Assembly: GCA_009885185.1 (NCBI GenBank)
Contig: VFLF01000300.1
Span: 1 to 10,305, forward strand
Direction: 5' to 3'
From: Nitrosomonadales bacterium
Lineage (GTDB): Bacteria; Pseudomonadota; Gammaproteobacteria; Burkholderiales; SG8-41
Length of the DNA: 10,305 bases
Within the stretch, counting starts at the first letter, position 1, and each line of letters starts with the position of its first letter. The notes beneath the pieces are model-generated. The model searched no databases, had not been told where the DNA came from, and saw only the letters and a program-made list of their open reading frames with translations. This document shows positions 3 through 9,498 of the stretch, piece by piece. The translations under genes and the position numbers were made by a program.

Positions 3-1430
3 TACAAATTTTCGGTGGTGGTGGGCGCGCTGGCGGCCAACCCCGCTGTGTACCTGATGGGCATGCAGTCGTCCGCCGAGGATGTCGAAAAGCGCTGGGG
101 GGATGCCACCGCGAATCCGATTCCGCCACGCGTGGTGGAGAACGCCGCGTGTCAGGAAGTAGTGATTGAAGGCGATGCGTTAAAGGGCGAGGGCAATGGC
201 CTCGACAGCATTCCGATTCCGATTTCCACGCCGGGCTTTGACAGCGCGCCGACGTTGACCGCTACCAATGTGATTACCAAAGATCCCGATACCGGCATCC
301 AGAATCACGGCACCTATCGCGCGGCGCTGAAGTCGAATGACCGGCTGGTGATACGCATGGCCACGCGCACCGGCGGCGCGGGCGGCTACCGACATTACGT
401 CAAGCATCAGCAGCGCGGTGACAAGGAAATGCCCTGTGCGATTGTGCTGGGGTGCCCGCCAGCGGTCGCGTATGTGGCGCCGATGAAATTGCCGATAGAT
501 GTGGATGAAATCGGCGTTGCGGGCGGGCTGGTGGGCGCGCCGATCAACGTGGTGAAGGCGCGCACGGTGGATTTGCTGGTGCCCGCCGAAGCCGAGATCG
601 TGATTGAAGGTTATTGCGACACGGAGTTCCTCGAACCCGAAGGCCCGTTCGGCGAATCGCACGGGCATGTGGCACTCGAAGAATTCAACATCCCCATGCG
701 CGTGACTGCGATCACGCATCGCCGCGACGCGGTGGTGGCGTCGTACCTGTCGCAGGTCACGCCCAGCGAATCGAGCGCAATCAAGCTGGTGTCGTATGAG
801 CCGATGTTTCTGAACCACTTGCGTAAAACGCTGGGCATCCGCGGCGTCAAGCGTGTCAAGCTGCACGAGCGGCTGACCGCGCTGCGGCGCATCATCATCA
901 TCGTGTTGGAAAAAAACACGCCGCGCACGGAAATCTGGCGCGCGTTGCAGGGCGCTGCCGCATTCCGTGCCGACTGCGGCAAAATCTGCATCGCAGTGGA
1001 TGAAGACATCGATCCGGAAAACTCCGATGCGATTTTCTGGGCGATGGCGTTTCGCATGAACCCGTCGGAAGATTTGCAGGTGATTAACTACCGCAGCCCC
1101 GGCCACGGCCCCGAGCGCGAGCACGAGACCGAGCAGCAAGATGCGACACTGTTGATGGACGCCACCAAAAAAGAAGAACTGCCGCCGCTGGCGCTGCCGA
1201 AAAAGGAATACATGGAGCGCGCCGGTAAAATCTGGGATGAACTGGGCCTGCCCAAACGCCGCGCGCAGTCGCCGTGGTTCGGGCCGGGTGACGGTGACTG
1301 GTTGCCGCAGTGGGATGATGCCGCGAAGCGCGCGGTGGCGGGTGACTATCAGGAAAACGGCAAGATTAGCGCGACACGGAAGCGCAAAGGGATTAAACCG
1401 GAGACGGGGTTTCGACCGGATGAAAAGTAA
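3..1430 (+). CDS. UbiD-family prenyl-FMN-dependent decarboxylase, 5' truncated by window edge
   Basis: Members of this family reversibly decarboxylate aromatic or alpha,beta-unsaturated acids using prenylated FMN made by a UbiX partner (not seen here). The frame is open from the first bases, so the true start lies upstream. Numbering from the GTG at 15, the cofactor/metal signature NHGTYR gives N97 and R102, and EGPFGE gives E209 and E214. These match the N...R and E...E residues of the Fdc1/UbiD active site. Other typical blocks are CPPAVAYVAP (147-156), the QVTPSES segment and LLMDATKK near the C-terminus. About 475 residues are visible, and the family runs near 480-510, so only a short N-terminal piece should be missing. 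It is followed after 61 bases by the next plus-strand gene, so co-transcription is likely. The substrate cannot be read from sequence; UbiD itself (ubiquinone synthesis) is unlikely given the catabolic neighbours. Confidence 0.9.
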   Translation, partial: YKFSVVVGALAANPAVYLMGMQSSAEDVEKRWGDATANPIPPRVVENAACQEVVIEGDALKGEGNGLDSIPIPISTPGFDSAPTLTATNVITKDPDTGIQNHGTYRAALKSNDRLVIRMATRTGGAGGYRHYVKHQQRGDKEMPCAIVLGCPPAVAYVAPMKLPIDVDEIGVAGGLVGAPINVVKARTVDLLVPAEAEIVIEGYCDTEFLEPEGPFGESHGHVALEEFNIPMRVTAITHRRDAVVASYLSQVTPSESSAIKLVSYEPMFLNHLRKTLGIRGVKRVKLHERLTALRRIIIIVLEKNTPRTEIWRALQGAAAFRADCGKICIAVDEDIDPENSDAIFWAMAFRMNPSEDLQVINYRSPGHGPEREHETEQQDATLLMDATKKEELPPLALPKKEYMERAGKIWDELGLPKRRAQSPWFGPGDGDWLPQWDDAAKRAVAGDYQENGKISATRKRKGIKPETGFRPDEK

Positions 1431-1446
1431 GTGGTAAACCAACTCT

Positions 1447-1472
1447 GTCATTCCCGCGTACGCGGGAATGAC
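1447..1472. repeat. REP-like palindrome, copy 1 (single 26-bp unit)
   Basis: This is a perfect 26-bp palindrome. The half-site GTCATTCCCGCGT is followed directly by its reverse complement. It lies in the gap between the UbiD-family gene and the 366-residue protein gene. It shares the GTCATTCCCGCG/GCGGGAAT core with the repeat at 9388-9469 and the GTCATTC outer motif with the pair at 2614-2705. Such elements are common dispersed repeats in beta- and gammaproteobacteria. As RNA it would form a strong hairpin between the genes and could attenuate or stabilise the transcript, but there is no T-tract to call it an intrinsic terminator. Confidence 0.85.
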
Positions 1473-1475
1473 AAT

Positions 1476-1491: not shown

Positions 1492-2592
1492 ATGAACAGG
1501 CCCGCTGATCCGCAGGAAATCAACGCAGAAGACTTGATCGAGTGGTACTACGCCCAAGGCTACTCCGATGGCCTGCCGCTCGTTCCACCCACGCCCGCAA
1601 AAATCGATGCGATGGTCAAAGCACTCGGCGGCGACCCATCCATTAAAGAATGCCGCGTGCCTCCGCGCTGGGGCAGCCTGACACGCGAGGTGCTGGCGAT
1701 CAATATGGTGATGGCGGGCTGTCTGCCGGAGTACGCATCCATCGTGCGTGCGGCCATGCATGCGCTTTGCGATCCGGCGTTTAATCTCAATGGCGTGCAG
1801 GCCACCACCCACATGGCGAGCCCGCTGCTGATCGTCAACGGCCCGGCGCGCACCGCAGCGGGCATGAACTCGGGCATGAATGTGTTTGGTTCGGGCAACC
1901 GCGCCAACGCCACCATCGGCCGCGCCATACGGTTGATACTGCTCAACGTCGGCGGCGGCTGGCCGGGCGAACTGGATAAAAGCACGCTGGGCTCGCCGGC
2001 GAAATACACCTACTGTATTGCCGAGAACGAAGAGGTCAGTCCCTTCGTGCCGTATCACGTCGAGCACGGCTACCAGGCCGAGGATTCCACCGTGTTCGTG
2101 TTGGCCGCCGAGCCACCGCACAGCGTGACCAATCACGTGGCCAACGATCCGCAGGGCATTCTCGACAGCATGTGTTCGGCGATGAGCACCATCTGCAACA
2201 ACAACGCGGTGATGGGTGGCCACTGCGCGGTGGTGATTGGCCCGGAGCACGCGCGCACCATCGCCAAGCACGGCTGGAAGCGCCACGACATCCGCCACTA
2301 TCTGTGGAAAAACGCCGGCAATCTGTGGAAGGATTTGTACTTCAACGATCGCTACGGCAAGGTGTATAACCGCAGCTTTCCCGCGTGGTACAAACGCGAG
2401 CCGGAGGCGATGACGCCGATCGTGCCCGCGCCGGACAACATTCACGTGTTTGTCGCGGGCGGCGATGCGGGACGCTTTTCGGCGTTTATCCCCGGCTGGG
2501 GCAAGGTGTCGTCGCCCGTGCTGCGCGCGATTGATCCGGGCACTGAGCGCGCGGGCGGACCGGTGTGTCTGGATGGGACTTGTTATTTGTGA
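1492..2592 (+). CDS. Conserved protein of unknown function, neighbour of UGSC selenoprotein
   Basis: The 366-residue product starts at the ATG behind a good GAGGAGA site. It has no signal peptide or obvious membrane segment, so it is probably cytoplasmic. I do not recognise a characterised enzyme. Visible blocks are WYYAQGYSDGLPLVPPT (18-34), PPRWGSLTREVLAINMVMAGC (57-77), the Gly/Asn-rich GMNSGMNVFGSGNRANATIGRA (124-145), and a C-terminal tail with paired cysteines, CLDGTC (359-364). It has nine cysteines in all (54, 77, 93, 175, 228, 235, 245, 359, 364), unusually many for this neighbourhood. The protein looks well conserved and globular. It precedes the UGSC selenoprotein gene by about 155 bases that contain a REP-like pair. 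The pairing suggests a partner or substrate-binding subunit of the selenoprotein, but that is inference. The gene ends in TGA at 2590-2592, which I read as a true stop. Confidence 0.8.
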   Translation: MNRPADPQEINAEDLIEWYYAQGYSDGLPLVPPTPAKIDAMVKALGGDPSIKECRVPPRWGSLTREVLAINMVMAGCLPEYASIVRAAMHALCDPAFNLNGVQATTHMASPLLIVNGPARTAAGMNSGMNVFGSGNRANATIGRAIRLILLNVGGGWPGELDKSTLGSPAKYTYCIAENEEVSPFVPYHVEHGYQAEDSTVFVLAAEPPHSVTNHVANDPQGILDSMCSAMSTICNNNAVMGGHCAVVIGPEHARTIAKHGWKRHDIRHYLWKNAGNLWKDLYFNDRYGKVYNRSFPAWYKREPEAMTPIVPAPDNIHVFVAGGDAGRFSAFIPGWGKVSSPVLRAIDPGTERAGGPVCLDGTCYL

Positions 2593-2613
2593 GCCAACCA
2601 TATCCCCCCTCCC

Positions 2614-2705
2614 GTCGTTCTGGCGAAAGCCAGAACCCAGGTGGTAACGAGCGGCGCGTTGCGCCGGAAATTTACGCACTGGATTCTGGCTTTTGCCAGA
2701 ATGAC
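2614..2705. repeat. REP-like inverted pair, copy 2
   Basis: Two 27-base units (2614-2640 and 2679-2705) lie in inverted orientation around a 38-base spacer and match each other at 24 of 27 positions. Each unit is itself a small hairpin (TTCTGGC...GCCAGAA) ending in an outer GTC/GAC. The architecture GTC[A/G]TTC...GAA[T/C]CCA is the same as the pair at 9388-9469, with a TGGC core in place of CCCGCG. It fills most of the intergenic space before the UGSC gene. A read-through transcript could fold into one long stem. Confidence 0.85.
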
Positions 2706-2736
2706 GAAGTAAGTAAATCGAGTTAATCGGATTCAC

Positions 2737-2740
2737 GGAG
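2737..2740 (+). promoter_or_regulatory. Ribosome binding site deciding the UGSC start
   Basis: GGAG lies only 1 base before the ATG at 2742 but 7 bases before the ATG at 2748. The normal spacing favours 2748 as the start, giving MTQPHYDPRG as the N-terminus. Confidence 0.65.
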
Positions 2741-2747
2741 AATGACC

Positions 2748-3290
2748 ATGACGCAACCACACTACGACCCACGCGGCATCGTCGAAGCCGACACCCGCGC
2801 CGCCGCGGCGCGTGCGCCCTCACTCAAGGGCAAGCGCCTCGCCATCCTCGATAATACCAAGTGGAACGCCGGCAAGCTGCTGCGTAACCTGCAAGAGGGT
2901 TTGGCCAAAGACACGGGCCTGTCCGCGATCAATTACTACCGCAAACATAGCTTCTCGATGAATGCCGCGCCGGAACTGATCGATGAAATCGCGGCGAATA
3001 ACGATCTGGTCATCACCGCTATCGGCGATTGAGGCTCCTGCACGTCGTGCTGTATGCACGACACAGTGGAGCTCGAAGCGCGGGGCTTGCCCACGGCGCT
3101 GATTATCACCACGGAGTTTCAGCTCGAGGCCCAGGTGCAGCGCGACGCGCTGGGCATGAGCGCGTTGGAGCCGGTGGTGATCGAGCACCCGTTAAGTTCG
3201 CTGACCGAAGCGGAGATCGCGCAACGCGCCGCGCAGGCATTGCCGCAGATTCAATCGGTGTGGCTCACAGGTAAAGCAAAAGGCGCCTAA
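2748..3290 (+). CDS. UGSC-family selenoprotein (TGA at 3030-3032 read as selenocysteine)
   Basis: Read through the TGA, this is a 180-residue protein with Sec at 95. The N-terminal half holds the family-like block LKGKRLAILDNTKWNAGKLL (26-45). A predicted beta-strand, LVITAIGD, leads directly into U95-G-S-C98, the motif that names the UGSC selenoprotein family first noted in marine metagenome surveys. The motif continues TSCCMHD, so Sec is followed by Cys 98, 101 and 102 and His 104, a dense thiol cluster that could be redox-active or bind metal. The C-terminal half (VELEARGLPTALIITTEF) continues the fold with no frame break. There is no signal peptide, so it is probably cytoplasmic. The stop is TAA at 3288-3290. 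A SECIS-like hairpin follows the TGA. The biochemical role of the family is unknown to me. A conventional annotation would give two fragments here (an ORF ending at 3032 and another starting at 3054). Confidence 0.92.
3030..3072 (+). promoter_or_regulatory. Sec codon and candidate bacterial SECIS of the UGSC gene
   Basis: After the TGA at 3030-3032, GTCGTGC (3044-3050) pairs perfectly with GCACGAC (3056-3062) around the loop TGTAT (3051-3055). An outer helix can form between GCTCC (3034-3038) and GGAGC (3068-3072). The apical loop begins 18 bases after the TGA and has G in its second position. Both fit the bacterial SECIS pattern recognised by SelB (loop roughly 16-37 bases downstream, G among the first two loop bases). 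Hand-folded only. Confidence 0.8.
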
Positions 3291-4259
3291 TTGAGAACAT
3301 TGTTGTTGGCATTCGTGGCGCTTCCTTCGGTTGTTGGCACCAGCGTAAGCGCACAAACGTTCCCCGCGAAACCCATCCGCATCATTGTCCCCTTTGCGCC
3401 GGGCGGCGCGAACGATCTGGTGACGCGGTTGGTGGCGCAGAAGTTGACCACGGGCATAGGCCAAACGGTGGTGGTTGAAAACCGCGGCGGCGCAGGCGGC
3501 ACCATCGGGCTGGACGCGTGCGCGAAAGCACCGCCGGACGGATACACGCTGGTGATGGCGCCCACCAGCGCGGTGGCGTTTGCACCCAGCCTCAACGCCA
3601 AGCTTTCGTACGATCCGGTGCGCGATTTCGCGCCGGTCACCGCCGTGTCAAGCGGGCCGAACGTGCTGGTGGTGCATCCCTCGGTGCCGGCCACCACGGT
3701 GAAGGATTTCATAGCGCTTGCGCGCACCAAAACCGGCAAGCTGAGTTATGCGTCATCCGGCGCCACCAGCATGTCGGGCATAGCCGCCGAGATGTTCAAA
3801 TCGATGGCGGGCATTGACATGGTGGGCGTGCCGTACAAAGGCACTGGCCCGGCGATTACCGAACTCATCGGCGGGCAGGTCGATGTGATGATCGCCGACT
3901 TGGCGATTTCGCTGCCGCATGTGAATGGCAAGCGCCTGCGCCCGATCGCGGTCACCGGGCCAAAGCGTTCGGCGCACGCGCAGCAGTTGCCGACGGTGGC
4001 CGAGTCGGGCGTGCCGGGCTATACACTGGTCAACTGGCGCGGCATACTGGCCCCGGCCGCGACGCCGCGGGATATCGTGTTAAAGCTCAATGCCGAAATT
4101 ATCAAGACGCTGCGCTCGCAGGACATACGCGATTCGCTGGCGCGCGAAGGCTTTGAGCCGATAGGTGATACGCCAGAGCAGTTTGCTGCGTTAATAAAGT
4201 CTGAAGTGGCGCGCTACGATAAATTGATTAAGGCGGCGGGGATCGCCGGCCAGTTGTGA
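3291..4259 (+). CDS. Bug/TctC-family periplasmic solute receptor (tripartite tricarboxylate transporter type), receptor 1
   Basis: The 322-residue exported binding protein belongs to the tripartite tricarboxylate transporter (TTT) receptor family. A signal peptide (LLLAFVALPSVVGTSVSA, about residues 4-21, cleaved before QTFPAKP) is followed by the hallmark start of the mature protein, PAKPIRIIVPFAPGGANDL. Further family blocks are VVVENRGGAGGTIG, the KAPPDGYTLVMAP loop, YDPVRDFAPV, VPYKGTGPAITELIGGQVD and LPTVAESGVPGY. The predicted start is TTG at 3291, immediately after the UGSC stop codon, with a weak AAAAGG at 3278-3283. The abutting stop and start imply translational coupling with the selenoprotein gene. 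The ligand is probably a carboxylate but cannot be read from sequence. No TctA/TctB membrane genes are adjacent. Confidence 0.93.
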   Translation: MRTLLLAFVALPSVVGTSVSAQTFPAKPIRIIVPFAPGGANDLVTRLVAQKLTTGIGQTVVVENRGGAGGTIGLDACAKAPPDGYTLVMAPTSAVAFAPSLNAKLSYDPVRDFAPVTAVSSGPNVLVVHPSVPATTVKDFIALARTKTGKLSYASSGATSMSGIAAEMFKSMAGIDMVGVPYKGTGPAITELIGGQVDVMIADLAISLPHVNGKRLRPIAVTGPKRSAHAQQLPTVAESGVPGYTLVNWRGILAPAATPRDIVLKLNAEIIKTLRSQDIRDSLAREGFEPIGDTPEQFAALIKSEVARYDKLIKAAGIAGQL

Positions 4260-4308
4260 AAGCCGGTGTAGTATGATCAGGTTGTCTACGAGAAGGTATC
4301 ATAAGTAT

Positions 4309-4902
4309 ATGTTTTTAAAAAGTAAATGTGCGTATCTGTGGGCGTTCATCGTGGCGCTGGGCGCGGTCGCGTGTTTTGGCGCAGCGCATGCGGCAGAAGG
4401 TTTGTTTCCCGCCAACACGGTGATGGCGCCGCCGCCAAAGCCCACGGTGATGCCAGAATTTGAATTCACCAATCTGCATGGCGGCGTGCTGAAATCATCG
4501 GAGCTGAAAGGCAGGGTCGTCGTCATCCGCTTCTGGGCGACGTGGTGAGACATCTGCCGAAACGAAATGCCTTCCGTGCAGAAGGCACACAGAAGTTACC
4601 CGGAAAAGGACGTGGTGGTGATGACGATTTCGCTCGACGGCGGCGATGGCGCGCCGGTGAAAAAATTTCTTGATCAGCACAAATACACCATGCCGTCGGC
4701 GCACGATAAGGGTATGGCCTATGGCCGCAAAATCGAAGCGCGTGGCGTGCCGATGACGTATATTATTGACCGCGATCAGAACATCGTCGCGCGCGGGATG
4801 GGGCCGCTGGACCTGGACCGTCCCGATGTCCGGAAGATGATTCAAACCCTCGTAGCGAAGCCGCAATCCAAAGCCGAGCTGAGAGCCGAACCACGTAATT
4901 AA
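4309..4902 (+). CDS. Exported thioredoxin/TlpA-like selenoprotein with UxxC active site (TGA at 4546-4548 read as Sec)
   Basis: Read through the TGA, this gives 197 residues. An N-terminal signal peptide has hydrophobic core LWAFIVALGAVACFGA and probable cleavage after AHA at about residue 28. It is followed by the thioredoxin fold of the TlpA/ResA class: FEFTNLHGG, SELKGRVVVIRFWATW, then U80-D-I-C83-RNEMP where relatives have WCxxC. The cis-proline loop GVPMTYIIDRDQ (P148) follows at the normal distance. Apart from two signal-peptide cysteines (7 and 22), C83 is the only cysteine, so U80 and C83 form the selenenylsulfide pair. Start: ATG 4309 has AGAAGG at 4291-4296; an in-frame ATG at 4273 would add 12 basic residues and cannot be excluded. 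It is followed after 14 bases by the Sec-peroxiredoxin gene, its likely partner in the periplasm. It likely acts as a thiol-disulfide reductase, and the source of its electrons is not visible. Confidence 0.9.
4546..4587 (+). promoter_or_regulatory. Sec codon and candidate bacterial SECIS of the thioredoxin-like gene
   Basis: After the TGA at 4546-4548, TGCCTTC (4568-4574) pairs perfectly with GAAGGCA (4581-4587) around the six-base loop CGTGCA (4575-4580). The loop begins 26 bases after the TGA and carries G in its second position, within the bacterial SECIS pattern. The stem lies entirely in coding sequence. Confidence 0.8.
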
Positions 4903-4904
4903 CC

Positions 4905-4910
4905 AAGGAG
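4905..4910 (+). promoter_or_regulatory. Strong ribosome binding site of the Sec-peroxiredoxin
   Basis: AAGGAG lies 6 bases before the ATG at 4917 and 2 bases after the previous stop codon. It fixes the start and implies the gene is read from the same transcript as the thioredoxin-like gene. Confidence 0.85.
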
Positions 4911-4916
4911 AAGCTG

Positions 4917-5468
4917 ATGTTTCTGCGAATGTTGAAAACGGTACTGGCGGCAACAGCGCTGATGCTAGCGGCCCAATCCAGTCATGCGCTGCAAGTGGGC
5001 GACAAGGCACCAGATTTCTCGCTGCCCTCGACCAAGGGCGGCAACGTGAGACTCTCCGATTTTGCCGGCAAGCAATCGGTGGTGCTCTTTACCTACATCG
5101 GCGCGTTCACCAAGGCCTGAACGCAGGAAGCCCTCGGCTTTCAACTTGATCTGCCCAAGTTTGAAGCCGTCAACGCCCAGGTTCTGGGCGTCAGCGTGGA
5201 TTTCCTCGATGCCAACCGTGCGTGGGTTGAGAAGATGGGTGTTACCTATCCCATACTCTCCGACTTGCAGCGCACGATGCTGCGTTCCTACAGGGCGCTG
5301 TTCGACGATCCTGAAATGGCCAAGTCCAATCGCATCAACGTTTACCTGCGCGCGCAGCGTGCGTGGTACGTGATCGACAAGCAGGGCATCGTGCGTTACG
5401 TAAACGTCGGCTCAAGCTCGCTGATACCCAGCGACGAGCTGATCGAGGTGGTGAAAAAGCACAACTGA
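4917..5468 (+). CDS. Exported peroxiredoxin (AhpC/TSA-type) selenoprotein (TGA at 5118-5120 read as Sec)
   Basis: Read through the TGA, this is a 183-residue protein. A signal peptide (about residues 1-24, MLKTVLAATALMLAAQSSHA) precedes a peroxiredoxin core: VGDKAPDFSLPSTKGGNVRLSDFAGKQSVVLF, the active-site loop GAFTKA-U68-TQEALGF, then VLGVSVD, PILSDLQ and R148-AWYVIDKQGIVRYV. Sec replaces the peroxidatic cysteine of the TxxC motif (T65), and R148 matches the conserved active-site arginine. The usual Pro of PxxxTxxC is Ile (I61). There is not one cysteine in the product, so it has no internal resolving thiol and must be regenerated by another protein, plausibly the UxxC protein encoded just upstream. 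Predicted role: reduction of hydroperoxides in the periplasm. The start is fixed by AAGGAG at 4905. The stop is TGA at 5466-5468, convergent with the next gene. Confidence 0.92.
5118..5168 (+). promoter_or_regulatory. Sec codon and candidate bacterial SECIS of the peroxiredoxin gene
   Basis: After the TGA at 5118-5120, GGCTTTCAACTT (5136-5147) pairs with AAGTTTGAAGCC (5157-5168): ten Watson-Crick pairs, one G-U pair and one mismatch. The nine-base loop is GATCTGCCC (5148-5156). The loop begins 27 bases after the TGA and starts with G, fitting the bacterial SECIS pattern. A shorter competing hairpin at 5126-5142 has a loop without G, only 12 bases from the TGA, and fits less well. Confidence 0.75.
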
Positions 5469-5541: not shown

Positions 5542-6633
5542 CTACTGCGACCTGATTCCCGCCGCCTTGGTGAGCTTCAGCCACTTGGCGATCTCGGCCC
5601 TGATGATGGTGTCGAACTCTTTGCTGGGGCCGCCGTGTGATTCCAACCCTTCGCGCAGCAGCAGACCCTTTACATCGGGCAACTGCACCACGCGCGCGAT
5701 TTCCGCGTTCAGGCGTTCGACTATTGCCGGCGGGGTCCTTGCCGGCGCCAGCATGCCGACCCAGGAGTTGTGCTCGTAGCCCGGCACGCCGGATTCAGCG
5801 ACGGTCGGGAATTCCGGCGCGGTCACCGAGCGCCGGATTCCGGTGACGGCCAGACCGCGCAGCTTTCCCGCGCGCGCGTGCGGCAGTCCGGTGGAGATGG
5901 TGGCGAAGTTGACCTGACACTCGCCCGACAACATCGCGATCATTCCCGGCGCGCCGCCTTTGTAAGGCACGTTCACCATGCGCGTGCCGGTCATGTACAT
6001 GAACAGTTCCGCCGCGAGATGCGTGCTGGTGGCGATACCGCTGGAGGCGTAGAAGATATCGTCCGGCTTGGCTTTCGCCACGGCGATCAACTCCTTCACT
6101 GACTTCACCGGCATCGATGGATGCACCACCAGCAAATGCGGCAGGCCAGCCATCTGCGACACCGGAGCGAAATCACGCACCGGATCAAAGGGCAGTTGCT
6201 TGTGCAGGCTGGGGTTGATGGTGAACGACGCGGCAACCGCGAGCAGCGTGTATCCGTCGGGCGGCGCTTTTGCCACGGCATCGGTGCCGTTGATGCTGCC
6301 GGCGCCGGGACGATTGTCGACGAGAAAATTTTCCTTGAACGTGTCGGTGAGTTTTTGCGCCACCGCGCGCGCGGCGAAATCGGTGGAGCCGCCGGCGCTT
6401 TGCGGCACGATGATGCGCACGGATTTGGCGGGGTAGGATTGTGCCGCGACGAGGCTGGCGGTTAGCAGATATCCGGCGGCCAGCGTTCCCAGGGATGTTG
6501 CGCGCCGCCAGCCGGTTCGCGCCCGCAAGCGGAGCGAGGGCGTCGTGTCCGGGATGGGCGCGGAAATAACGCCTATGCGAAGGCGAGGCGGGTGCATGGG
6601 GAATTGCTGTGGCAGGCGGGTATCAGTCCGCAT
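5542..6633 (-). CDS. Bug/TctC-family periplasmic solute receptor, receptor 2
   Basis: This is a TTT-type receptor. The mature protein begins with QSYPAKSVRIIVPQSAGGSTDFAARAVAQKL, followed by LVDNRPGAGSINGTDAVAKAPPDGYTLL, LPFDPVRDFAPVSQM, VNVPYKGGAPGMIAMLSGE and FPTVAESGVPGYEHNSW, all characteristic blocks. From the ATG at 6633 it is 363 residues, longer than the usual 320-330, because some 50 residues precede the hydrophobic signal core (TLAAGYLLTASLVAA). A later start, ATG 6597 or a TTG nearer the core, may be the true one, since no clear Shine-Dalgarno decides it. The 6633 start would overlap the end of the upstream thiamine-diphosphate enzyme gene by 11 bases, a layout that allows translational coupling. 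It likely imports a carboxylate related to the substrate of that enzyme, but no membrane components are near. Confidence 0.92.
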   Translation of the reverse strand: MRTDTRLPQQFPMHPPRLRIGVISAPIPDTTPSLRLRARTGWRRATSLGTLAAGYLLTASLVAAQSYPAKSVRIIVPQSAGGSTDFAARAVAQKLTDTFKENFLVDNRPGAGSINGTDAVAKAPPDGYTLLAVAASFTINPSLHKQLPFDPVRDFAPVSQMAGLPHLLVVHPSMPVKSVKELIAVAKAKPDDIFYASSGIATSTHLAAELFMYMTGTRMVNVPYKGGAPGMIAMLSGECQVNFATISTGLPHARAGKLRGLAVTGIRRSVTAPEFPTVAESGVPGYEHNSWVGMLAPARTPPAIVERLNAEIARVVQLPDVKGLLLREGLESHGGPSKEFDTIIRAEIAKWLKLTKAAGIRSQ

Positions 6634-8400: not shown

Positions 8401-9498
8401 TCAATCCACGCGCGCGCCTGACAGCTTGATTACATTCGCCCACTTGGCGATTTCGGATTTTACGTGCGCGGCCAACTGCTCACGCGTGCTGCCCACCGGC
8501 ACCACGCCCTCTTCGACGAGCCGCGCCTTGATGTCTGCGCTCTGCATGATTTTTGCGACCTGTGCATTCAGTACGTTGAGTATCTCGGCGGACGTTCCTG
8601 CCGGCGCGAATAGCCCGTACCACTGGCTCGATTCATAACCTTTCAGTCCCGCTTCGGCCACCGTGGGCAGATTCGGCATCACCGGCAGCCGCTCGCGGCT
8701 GGTGACCGCCAGCGCGCGCAGTCGGTTGGTTTTGATATGTGGCCCGGCGTTGATCGCGGGCAAAAACATGATCATCGCTTCGCCGCCCATCAGCCCGATC
8801 ATCGCCGGCCCTGAGCCGCGATACGGAATGTGTTCCATCTTCACGCCGGCCATCACGTTGAACAACTCGCCCGCCAGATGCGGCGTGCTGCCGCTGCCCG
8901 AACCGGCAAAACCGATGGCGCCGGGCTTGGCTTTGGCGAGCGCGATCAATTCATTGACTGATTTTGCGGGCAGCGACGGATGCGCCACCAGCACATTGGG
9001 GCCGAATGCAATCAGGCTGATCGCTTCGAAATCACGCACAGGATCATACGGCGCCTTGCGATACAGGCTCGGCGAGGTGACGAAATTCGCGCCGTTGACC
9101 ATCAGCGTGTAGCCATCCTTGGCGGATTTCGCCACCACTTCGCTGCCGATCATGCCGTTGGCGCCGCCGCGGTTCTCCACCACGAACGTGCGGCCCAGCG
9201 CCTCGGAAAGTTTGGCCGCGGTGAGGCGGCCGAGGCTATCCACGCCGCCGCCGGGCGGGAAGGGGACGATGATGCGCACGGGGGCGGTGGGGTATTGTTG
9301 TGCGCGTGCGGGCGGCGCGCCGCTAAATGCAATCGCGGCAGCAATTGAAAATGTCAGGATGCAGGAAGTCGCCGAAAACCCAAAATCGTCATTCCCGCGC
9401 AGGCGGGAATCCATAACGCACGTGGCTTCGGCAAACCGTGTTATGGGTTCCCGCCTGCGCGGGAACGACGGGGTAGGTATTTTCGTTATCGCGGCCAT
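8401..9498 (-). CDS. Bug/TctC-family periplasmic solute receptor, receptor 3, with repeat-encoded N-terminus
   Basis: From ATG 9498 this is 365 residues. The mature part is a normal TTT receptor: QQYPTAPVRIIVPFPPGGGVDSLGRLTAAKL, VVENRGGANGMIGSEVVAK, DGYTLMVNGANF, YDPVRDFEAISLI, IPYRGSGPAMIGLMGGE and LPTVAEAGLKGYESSQW. The signal core is ILTFSIAAAIAFSGAPPARA. In front of it about residues 10-37 (PSFPRRREP...MDSRLRGND) are the translation of a REP-like inverted repeat, so the N-terminus is about 40 residues longer than usual. ATG 9498 lies 2 bases after the stop codon of the upstream FAD-subunit gene, with AGAGGG 10 bases before it, which favours coupled initiation there. ATG 9414, inside the repeat, would give a shorter and more ordinary signal peptide but lacks a ribosome site. 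Whether export still works is open. Confidence 0.88.
   Translation of the reverse strand: MAAITKIPTPSFPRRREPITRFAEATCVMDSRLRGNDDFGFSATSCILTFSIAAAIAFSGAPPARAQQYPTAPVRIIVPFPPGGGVDSLGRLTAAKLSEALGRTFVVENRGGANGMIGSEVVAKSAKDGYTLMVNGANFVTSPSLYRKAPYDPVRDFEAISLIAFGPNVLVAHPSLPAKSVNELIALAKAKPGAIGFAGSGSGSTPHLAGELFNVMAGVKMEHIPYRGSGPAMIGLMGGEAMIMFLPAINAGPHIKTNRLRALAVTSRERLPVMPNLPTVAEAGLKGYESSQWYGLFAPAGTSAEILNVLNAQVAKIMQSADIKARLVEEGVVPVGSTREQLAAHVKSEIAKWANVIKLSGARVD
9388..9469. repeat. REP-like inverted pair, copy 3, inside a coding region
   Basis: Two 30-base units (9388-9417 and 9440-9469), inverted around a 22-base spacer, match at 28 of 30 positions. Each unit is a small palindrome (TTCCCGCG...GCGGGAA) with an outer GTC/GAC. 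The core is the same as in the 26-bp palindrome at 1447-1472. The element is in frame with receptor 3 and contributes no stop codon to it. Confidence 0.9.

What the first reader, a model, noticed from the sequence alone, without database searches (positions are those of the whole stretch)
2748..5468. Cluster of three selenoprotein genes in 2.7 kb, possibly one redox system
Three different selenoprotein families lie in a row on one strand, interrupted only by a solute receptor, with tight spacing and a stop-start junction. Most bacteria that use Sec have one to a few scattered selenoproteins. The combination of a cytoplasmic UGSC protein, its conserved neighbour, a receptor and an exported Sec-thioredoxin/Sec-peroxiredoxin pair looks like a dedicated selenium-dependent system, either for detoxifying a peroxide or for handling the substrate imported by the receptor. 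Three independent errors landing on three catalytic codons is not credible.
Basis: inference. Interest (0 to 1): 0.93.

Follow-up and report, generated by a model that had tools for sequence, protein, structure and literature searches.

The report
Two selenoprotein modules side by side
This stretch of a bacterial genome carries three genes whose in-frame TGA codons are predicted to encode selenium at the active site: two of them sit next to each other in nearly every near relative that has them and likely form a peroxide-destroying pair outside the inner membrane, while the third belongs to a separate gene pair that related genomes carry up to dozens of times and that would be a family of selenium-dependent reductases of unknown substrates.

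Summary
Confirmed: in-frame TGA codons lie at the catalytic positions of a UGSC protein (3030-3032), a TlpA-like thioredoxin (4546-4548) and a peroxiredoxin (5118-5120), each followed by a SECIS-like hairpin conserved over 32-34 distinct sequences. Of 35 relatives' genomes, 33 pass the selB cut-off and 33 the tRNA-Sec cut-off. "One system" is only partly supported. The Sec-Trx/Sec-Prx pair is a unit: Trx lies directly upstream of Prx in 42 of 43 nearer loci, the other being cut by a contig end, but not in 45 remoter Prx loci. UGSC stands beside the pair in 5 of those 43. UGSC's fixed partner is the unnamed gene at 1492-2592 (gene2): adjacent to 47 of 53 UGSC copies in two genomes. All 53 copies carry TGA; 60 genomes of one family hold 1-48 UGSC matches each. 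Best mechanism: (a) a one-Sec peroxidase recycled by a Sec-TlpA; (b) a Sec-dependent two-subunit reductase of unknown substrate, perhaps distantly akin to glycine/proline reductase. The receptor recurs beside the Trx/Prx pair, less clearly beside UGSC. No experiment was possible.

The parts
3..1430 (+). UbiD-family decarboxylase (5' end outside window); flanking, not part of either selenoprotein module
   Evidence: PF01977, PF20696
1492..2592 (+). gene2: unnamed 366-aa partner of UGSC
   Evidence: no Pfam/NCBIfam match; 7950 of 8000 scored candidates are homologues (capped); within 500 nt on the same strand of 47 of 53 UGSC copies in two genomes
2613..2706 (.). inverted repeat (35-nt arms, 83% complementary) between gene2 and UGSC; in L002, L007 and L008 the two matches are 34-37 nt apart
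2748..3290 (+). UGSC-family selenoprotein gene
   Evidence: PF24696, NF041046 over cut-offs
3030..3032 (+). TGA = predicted Sec95 of UGSC
   Evidence: same codon in all 35 extracted sequences
3045..3061 (+). SECIS-like hairpin of UGSC (TCGTGC-TGTAT-GCACGA)
   Evidence: 6 inner pairs form in all 32 distinct sequences, 0 of 500 shuffles reach the pairing or covariation score; two outer pairs of the RNAalifold fold fail in some sequences (184 of 192 cells)
3291..4259 (+). TctC/Bug solute receptor, start abuts the UGSC stop
   Evidence: PF03401
4309..4902 (+). TlpA/ResA-like thioredoxin with N-terminal signal sequence (read by eye), Sec in UxxC
   Evidence: PF00578/PF08534/PF13905
4546..4548 (+). 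TGA = predicted Sec80 of the thioredoxin
   Evidence: TGA in 32 of 34 loci
4569..4586 (+). SECIS-like hairpin of the thioredoxin (GCCTTC-CGTGCA-GAAGGC)
   Evidence: 5 counted pairs form in all 32 distinct sequences kept, 3 with two-sided changes; 0 of 500 shuffles; 171 of 175 cells with three remoter rows included
4917..5468 (+). peroxiredoxin with N-terminal signal sequence (read by eye); Sec is its only Cys/Sec residue
   Evidence: PF00578 118 bits
5118..5120 (+). TGA = predicted Sec68 (peroxidatic, TxxU)
   Evidence: TGA in 69 of 80 loci, Cys in 11
5138..5166 (+). SECIS-like hairpin of the peroxiredoxin
   Evidence: 8 pairs form in all 34 distinct near relatives; weaker against shuffles (18 of 500 reach it)
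5542..6594 (-). second TctC receptor, convergent with Prx
   Evidence: PF03401; TctC within 600 nt downstream of Prx in 18 of 39 loci

Best explanation
The stretch holds two neighbouring gene modules with in-frame TGA codons predicted to be read as selenocysteine, and they are likely two systems rather than one: a thioredoxin-peroxiredoxin pair predicted to be exported and likely to destroy peroxides in the periplasm, and one copy of a two-gene module (gene2-UGSC) predicted to be a cytoplasmic, thiol-dependent reductase. Module A (4309-5468). Shown: the two genes are adjacent, on one strand, in 42 of 43 nearer loci; the peroxiredoxin has TxxU and no other Cys in 36 of 37 loci; the thioredoxin has UxxC; a DsbD-type membrane gene is in 10 of 10 genomes. 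Inferred: Sec68 reduces H2O2 or an organic peroxide and becomes a selenenic acid; having no resolving Cys, the enzyme passes the oxidising equivalents to Sec80/Cys83 of its neighbour, which DsbD re-reduces. Module B (1492-3290). Shown: UGSC and gene2 are adjacent in 47 of 53 copies and often lie in one reading frame; the two genomes examined hold 17 and 36 divergent copies, 12 of the 17 with a copy at least 80% identical in the other genome. Inferred: Sec95 at the start of an alpha-helix attacks a bound substrate, Cys98 resolves the adduct, thioredoxin restores it, and each paralogue acts on a different small organic molecule.
For: Sec: TGA at the same codons in relatives, hairpins, selB over cut-off in 33 of 35 genomes (2 of 14 control genomes) and tRNA-Sec at 69 bits or more in 33 of 35 (cut-off 47, passed by 5 of 14 control genomes). 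Module A: 42 of 43 loci, cysteine count, DsbD_TM 10 of 10, though 10 of 14 control genomes have it too. Independence. Module B: 15 of 17 and 32 of 36 UGSC copies beside gene2, 8 and 16 of them with no TAA/TAG between, 22 of the 53 in open frames of 400-630 aa; no gene2 in 400 kb of G008 picked by hand away from known UGSC places; UxxC in 50 of 53 copies; 15 of 17 copies in one genome are closer to a copy in another genome than to a sister copy; AlphaFold model of UGSC pLDDT 88.5, Sec95 between strand 87-93 and helix 96-111; Cys forms of the pair beside thioredoxin reductase in 3 of 8 plasmid regions opened, of 24 records with a match.
Against: No expression, Sec-insertion or activity data; export is read from the sequence by eye only. 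The Trx-Prx order is not general: of 45 remoter Prx loci (L036-L080) 4 have a Trx-like match within 400 nt, all downstream of Prx, and 25 of 60 family genomes have no Prx hit at E<=1e-20. The UGSC fold matches in the PDB are generic and the gene2 fold is unresolved. Profile comparison of UGSC with PrdB-like proteins gives only 28% probability. trxB lies near none of 82 UGSC loci from the genome searches, which are shorter (up to about 3 kb each side) than the plasmid regions (8 kb each side). A Sporomusa gene2-UGSC fusion has Met where Sec/Cys is expected, so not every member can use thiol or selenol chemistry. Two of 34 Trx partners carry Cys. The Prx hairpin is weaker against shuffles, and 39 more distant Prx sequences share no fold. 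The count of two-sided pairs is reached by 59 (UGSC) and 132 (Prx) of 500 shuffles. TctC near UGSC is only modestly enriched. 'One reading frame' was judged with TGA read through, so a pair of genes split by a TGA stop in the same frame would be counted.
Confidence: 0.6

Rival explanations
1. One dedicated selenium-dependent system: receptor brings in a substrate, UGSC/gene2 converts it, and the exported pair removes peroxide made on the way.
For: Tight spacing and a stop-start junction in the window; the same order gene2-UGSC-TctC-TauD-Trx-Prx in L002, L007, L008 and L208, and gene2-UGSC-Trx-Prx in L005.
Against: Loci with ubiD-TctC-TauD-Trx-Prx but no UGSC/gene2 (L004, L009) and with ubiD-Trx-Prx only (L001, L010, L211); 52 of 53 UGSC copies lack the Trx in the fetched stretch.
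Confidence: 0.15
2. The exported pair is not a peroxidase couple but a thiol/selenol relay for another envelope target (for example reducing cytochrome c or receptor disulfides), with the Prx-like protein acting as a redox sensor.
For: TlpA/ResA relatives serve such roles (established knowledge, recalled); scores are far below the ResA and TlpA equivalog cut-offs, so the role of this subfamily is open; the pair recurs beside TctC receptors.
Against: The Prx keeps an AFTxxUTxE motif in the 37 nearest loci and has no further Cys in 36 of 37, which fits a partner-recycled peroxidase.
Confidence: 0.2
3. UGSC/gene2 is not a redox enzyme: Sec is a strong nucleophile or metal/metalloid ligand in a lyase, hydrolase or racemase-like reaction.
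For: A Sporomusa fusion has Met at the Sec position; weak gene2 matches to class I fumarases and cyclic amide hydrolases; Cys copies lie among CoA-transferase, lyase and hydratase genes.
Against: TGA in 53 of 53 copies of two Sec-using genomes, with Cys three residues on in 50 of 53 (UxxC, a redox pair); thioredoxin reductase beside three Cys copies.
Confidence: 0.3

Closest known systems
UGSC-containing selenoprotein family (GOS 2008; PF24696, NF041046)
   Same: UGSC gene scores over both curated cut-offs, has the UGSC motif and TGA; GOS reports 255 Sec and 21 Cys sequences and a 'UGSC/Unknown_1' fusion (PMC2398784, passages read)
   Different: Here it is shown as a near-constant pair with gene2 (possibly Unknown_1; not checked, figure S1 not seen) and as a set of up to dozens of paralogues per genome
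Sec-containing peroxiredoxin (TxxU) and Sec thioredoxin-like (UxxC) families
   Same: Same motifs as listed in PMC13188914 and PMC2398784 (passages read)
Tso (three selenoprotein operon) and SAO operons (Haft; as cited in PMC13188914)
   Same: Several selenoprotein genes in a row
   Different: None of the window's ten proteins scanned matched a Tso or SAO model in NCBIfam at E<=1e-3 among the rows shown; the Tso paper itself is not held
Glycine reductase GrdB / D-proline reductase PrdB (PF07355)
   Same: UxxCT motif followed by ...E..G.PT..I; profile comparison aligns Sec to Sec; thioredoxin reductase beside some copies (that grd/prd operons carry it is recalled)
   Different: No Pfam match to PF07355; profile probability only 28%; partner gene2 matches no known Grd/Prd subunit

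Membership tests
UGSC family (PF24696 / NF041046) | score over curated cut-off | tested here: met
   197.2 bits (cut-off 25), 160.4 bits (cut-off 125)
UGSC family (PF24696 / NF041046) | UGSC motif with Sec codon and SECIS | tested here: met
AhpC/TSA peroxiredoxin (PF00578) | score over cut-off and peroxidatic T-x-x-C/U | tested here: met
   117.8 bits (cut-off 26); AFTKAU
AhpC/TSA peroxiredoxin (PF00578) | resolving Cys (2-Cys types) | tested here: not met
   no Cys from 45 residues before Sec to the end in 36 of 37 loci: a one-Sec type
ResA / TlpA equivalogs (PRK03147, NF047696) | score over curated cut-off | tested here: not met
   81 of 170 and 74 of 230 bits: TlpA-like only
GrdB/PrdB (PF07355) | sequence match of UGSC | tested here: not met
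   no Pfam match listed even at E<=10
GrdB/PrdB (PF07355) | distant relationship by profile comparison | tested here: inconclusive
   hhalign E 6e-4 for one comparison, probability 28%, Sec aligned to Sec
GrdB/PrdB-type reductase | thioredoxin-dependent reductive activity | not testable with these tools
   needs enzyme assay
Tso operon | TsoA, TsoB, TsoC families | tested here: not met
   no such NCBIfam match among the proteins scanned
SAO operon | SaoB, SaoC, SaoL, SaoP, SaoT, SaoX families | tested here: not met
   no such NCBIfam match
bacterial SECIS | hairpin shortly downstream of UGA (spacing rule recalled) | tested here: met
   stems begin 12, 20 and 17 nt after the three TGA codons; pairing conserved in near relatives

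The most novel reading that the evidence does not exclude
gene2-UGSC is a new class of two-subunit selenoenzyme, a cytoplasmic counterpart of glycine and proline reductase, that one betaproteobacterial family has multiplied into an arsenal of up to dozens of substrate-specific selenium-dependent reductases per genome; beside it, the lineage has built a selenium-to-selenium relay in the periplasm, in which a one-Sec peroxidase is recycled by a Sec-thioredoxin.
Probability: 0.3. Interest if true: 0.87.

Novelty: new variant of a known kind. Interest (0 to 1): 0.66.

Why it matters
UGSC has been a prominent selenoprotein of aquatic metagenomes since 2008, and a 2026 review still lists it among those with uncharacterised roles (PMC2398784, PMC13188914, passages). 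This work gives it a near-constant, unnamed partner, both gene orders and likely fusions, Cys forms in haloarchaea and bacteria (three with thioredoxin reductase next door), and a lineage in which two genomes examined keep 17 and 36 divergent copies with TGA. That makes its role testable: co-purification, thiol dependence, substrate screening. The Trx/Prx pair is a case of two selenoproteins that likely react with each other outside the cytoplasm. The reviews name anaerobic delta-proteobacteria, clostridia and Synergistota as the selenoprotein-rich groups (PMC9312934, PMC13188914, passages); this betaproteobacterial family would join them. PMC13188914 gives 57 and 63 selenoprotein genes as the largest sets, so the totals here are not shown to be a record; the number of members of one family is what stands out.

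Tried and rejected
Sequencing error or a reassigned TGA: rejected, because TGA recurs at one codon in relatives with hairpins, and other genes of the window use TGA as stop (Prx, gene2 and TctC end in TGA). JGI protein entries with Trp at the Sec position look like TGA read as Trp by a gene caller; among the 80 genome loci the codon is TGA in 69 and Cys in 11, never Trp.

MAG duplication as the cause of many UGSC copies: rejected for the two genomes examined; nearest sister copies are at most 72% identical in G008; in G004 one pair is 90% identical, the rest at most 68%, and 6 copies align to no sister over 80 residues; 15 of 17 have closer counterparts in the other genome. The 1-48 range counts matches, can include split fragments, was not checked copy by copy, and the 48 is the number scored out of 70 candidates. 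In G009, 5 of 35 matches have no TGA; four of them are pieces that begin at or after the Sec position and the fifth is a 32-position match under the cut-off.

TctC as evidence for a UGSC substrate: not convincing (51% of random windows have one). The 400 kb of control were 20 stretches picked by hand from long contigs of G008, away from the UGSC places, so the lack of UGSC there is by construction; the lack of gene2 is not.

Promoter/terminator scan: 1 promoter-like site (1.7 expected) and 7 terminator-like (4.8 expected), uninformative. Rfam hits are below gathering scores and overlap inverted repeats. DNA search of plasmids with the cluster found only partial matches (no record covers 80% of it; the five rows listed, of 124 records, lie mainly over the receptor). 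Weak extra Pfam hits (ERO1, ScaI) are taken as noise. Pfam of ten ORFs flanking Trx/Prx in six remoter loci gave TctC (3), an ABC-2 transporter, a luciferase-like monooxygenase and five without a match, some of which may not be genes.

Rows dropped: the genome scan kept the best 80 of more than 593 matches. The Trx/Prx adjacency count uses L001-L035 and L208-L215; L036-L080 are told apart. One search left out Trx rows L039, L053, L058 and rows without TGA, limited Prx to L001-L035 and L037, and counted a trimmed set of pairs; the untrimmed counts are 184 of 192, 171 of 175 and 306 of 306 cells; 39 other Prx sequences gave no common fold. The pairs come from these same sequences, so the slid controls lean in their favour. 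Of 24 plasmid records with gene2, 8 were opened. Literature: searches; 'not listed' claims rest on passages of PMC13188914, PMC2398784, PMC9312934, PMC5029168 and PMC12013277; the Haft & Tolstoy 2025 paper is not held, the Haft & Gwadz 2023 paper was not asked for, and either may describe related neighbourhoods.


Full report
WHAT IS THERE. The window (10,305 bases; no whole genome is held for it) reads on the + strand: ubiD fragment, gene2, UGSC, TctC receptor, TlpA-like thioredoxin, peroxiredoxin; then on the - strand a TctC receptor, a TPP enzyme, a third TctC and an FAD-binding subunit. Translating TGA as Sec opens three frames, each with one internal TGA at the residue expected for catalysis: UGSC U95, thioredoxin U80 in UxxC, peroxiredoxin U68 in TxxU. 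Family scores are. gene2 has no Pfam or NCBIfam match, yet 7950 of 8000 scored candidates in a capped protein search are homologues.

ARE THE TGA CODONS SEC? One genome scan with a Prx alignment kept the best 80 loci of more than 593 matches. The Prx codon is TGA in 69 of 80 and Cys in 11; in the nearest, L001-L037, it is TGA in 37 of 37, and the Trx codon is TGA in 32 of 34; two Trx (L033, L035, Rokubacteria) carry Cys. All 35 UGSC sequences extracted (32 distinct, window included) have TGA. Downstream hairpins, on a trimmed set of pairs and near relatives only: UGSC 6 pairs, 32 distinct sequences; Trx 5 pairs, 32; Prx 8 pairs, 34; every pair forms in every sequence, against 13-63% of cells when the partner is slid by 1-3 columns; shuffles that reach the covariation score: 0, 0 and 18 of 500; shuffles that reach the number of two-sided pairs: 59, 0 and 132. 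RNAalifold without trimming: 184 of 192, 171 of 175 and 306 of 306 cells paired, z against column shuffles -4.2, -6.9 and -2.5; 39 remoter Prx sequences share no fold. In 35 relatives' genomes selB passes its cut-off in 33, the other two holding fragments; tRNA-Sec reaches 69 bits or more in 33 (cut-off 47, which 5 of 14 control genomes also pass).

ONE SYSTEM OR TWO? In 43 Trx/Prx loci (L001-L035 and L208-L215) the Trx lies directly upstream of Prx on the same strand in 42; in L030 the contig ends. In 45 remoter Prx loci (L036-L080) a Trx-like match is within 400 nt in 4, always downstream, 3 of them with TGA: so the Trx-Prx order marks one branch of this Prx family. UGSC with gene2 is near in 5 of 43 (L002, L005, L007, L008, L208), all with Prx 69-91% identical to the window's; L001, L003, L004, L009, L010, L210 and L211 are comparably near (63-87%) and lack it, some with ubiD-TctC-TauD-Trx-Prx or ubiD-Trx-Prx; L006, L024, L030, L034 and L209 have under 1.5 kb upstream. 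Conversely, of 17 UGSC copies in genome G008 one is beside the Trx, of 36 in G004 none, with one remote Prx-like TGA match near a G004 copy (L157). All 60 sampled genomes of the family of G008 have UGSC; 35 of 60 have a Prx hit at E<=1e-20, 30 of them at E<1e-50. So the cluster is best read as two modules put side by side in one lineage. The window also lacks a TauD-like dioxygenase that relatives have between TctC and Trx.

THE RECEPTOR. TctC genes are very common here (46 hits at 25 bits or more, 42 above 60 bits, in 400 kb of G008). Beside UGSC they are only modestly enriched (39 of 53 stretches, against 51% of random 6.5-kb windows). Beside the Trx/Prx pair they are clearly enriched: same strand within 600 nt upstream of Trx in 15 of 37 loci (2.9% expected) and within 600 nt downstream of Prx in 18 of 39 (6.0% expected). 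Many of these loci are related, so the number of independent events is small, and the expectation comes from one genome.

MODULE A. The peroxiredoxin has no Cys besides Sec in 36 of 37 loci (counted from 45 residues before Sec), so it cannot form an internal resolving bond; its neighbour carries U-x-x-C (C-x-x-C in two). Both have N-terminal signal sequences (read by eye). DsbD_TM passes its cut-off in 10 of 10 genomes, as in 10 of 14 controls. The inferred cycle is peroxide -> Sec68-SeOH -> mixed bond with Sec80 of the thioredoxin -> Sec80/Cys83 selenenylsulfide -> DsbD. Every chemical step is inference from established peroxiredoxin and TlpA/DsbD knowledge.

MODULE B. gene2 is within 500 nt of UGSC on the same strand in 15 of 17 (G008) and 32 of 36 (G004) copies, in both orders; in 8 and 16 of them no TAA/TAG lies between, TGA being read through, and 22 of the 53 UGSC matches lie in open frames of 400-630 aa, which speaks for true fusions. 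Two of the six exceptions (L122, L133) lie within 0.3 kb of a contig end. gene2 does not occur in the 400-kb control, which was picked away from UGSC. Copies are old: 15 of 17 in G008 have a closer copy in G004 than within G008, and 12 of the 17 have one at least 80% identical; the window-type copy has none above 42%. UGSC is modelled as a Rossmann/flavodoxin-like domain with Sec95 at the start of helix 96-111. Hints for a reductase: UxxC in 50 of 53 copies; Sec aligned to Sec in a weak profile match to PrdB-like proteins of the same genomes (28% probability, E 6e-4 for one comparison); Cys forms beside trxB in 3 of 8 plasmid regions opened (Roseovarius, Arthrobacter with trxB-trxA-gene2-UGSC, Variovorax). 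Against: no trxB near 82 shorter UGSC loci from the genome searches; a Sporomusa fusion with Met in place of Sec; unresolved gene2 fold.

WHAT IS KNOWN. UGSC (255 Sec, 21 Cys sequences in GOS), its 'UGSC/Unknown_1' fusion and a few selenoprotein gene pairs were reported in 2008 (PMC2398784, passages). A 2026 review names UGSC among selenoproteins whose functions remain largely uncharacterised and describes Tso and SAO selenoprotein operons and selenoproteomes of up to 57 and 63 genes (PMC13188914, passages). The families here are known; the Sec-Trx/Sec-Prx pair, the gene2 partnership as a rule and the number of Sec-UGSC paralogues were not found in the papers searched, with the Tso paper itself not held.

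VERDICT. The most surprising part lies outside the given interval: the sheer number of UGSC-gene2 modules in this lineage.

Noticed in passing
G008, G004 and further genomes: 60 of 60 sampled genomes of one betaproteobacterial family carry 1-48 UGSC matches each; the rows listed (capped, best first) each carry one TGA.
   Followed up: partly
L165-L172, L175, L176: A PrdB-like selenoprotein with a UPNCTC motif in eight of the ten genomes searched for PF07355; Entotheonella (L164, L173) and G014 (L163) also hold full-length GrdB-like genes with TGA.
   Followed up: partly
L207:7320-9044 (Sporomusa termitida plasmid): UGSC-gene2 fusion with Met in place of Sec/Cys and Ser in place of the second Cys: a member that cannot use thiol or selenol chemistry there.
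   Followed up: no
L200, L202, L206: Cys-type gene2-UGSC pairs on plasmids beside thioredoxin reductase, once with thioredoxin; other pairs on haloarchaeal plasmids (L201, L204, L205).
   Followed up: partly
window 1445-1474, 2613-2706, 9390-9467: Palindromic repeats between genes; the first and third (CCCGC..GCGGGAA cores) overlap the sub-threshold Rfam hits, and the second separates gene2 from UGSC.
   Followed up: partly
L002, L004, L007, L008, L009, L208: A TauD-like dioxygenase (named by eye from its sequence) lies between TctC and Trx in relatives and is missing from the window.
   Followed up: no
L039, L053, L058, L072: In remoter genomes a Trx-like gene lies downstream of Prx instead of upstream, three of four with TGA: the partnership may have formed more than once.
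   Followed up: partly
protein records P0124-P0151: Many JGI Prx entries show Trp at the Sec position, and other entries start just after it: signs of gene callers mishandling TGA.
   Followed up: no
records of L002, L004, L005, L007 and others: Several MAG records are titled Bordetella parapertussis; the label looks like a placeholder and was not relied on.
   Followed up: no
gene2 C-terminus, window about 2566-2589: The 68 aligned close gene2 homologues share two invariant Cys near the C-terminus (CxDGTC-like, C359 and C364) that the more distant Arthrobacter, Variovorax and Sporomusa copies lack.
   Followed up: no
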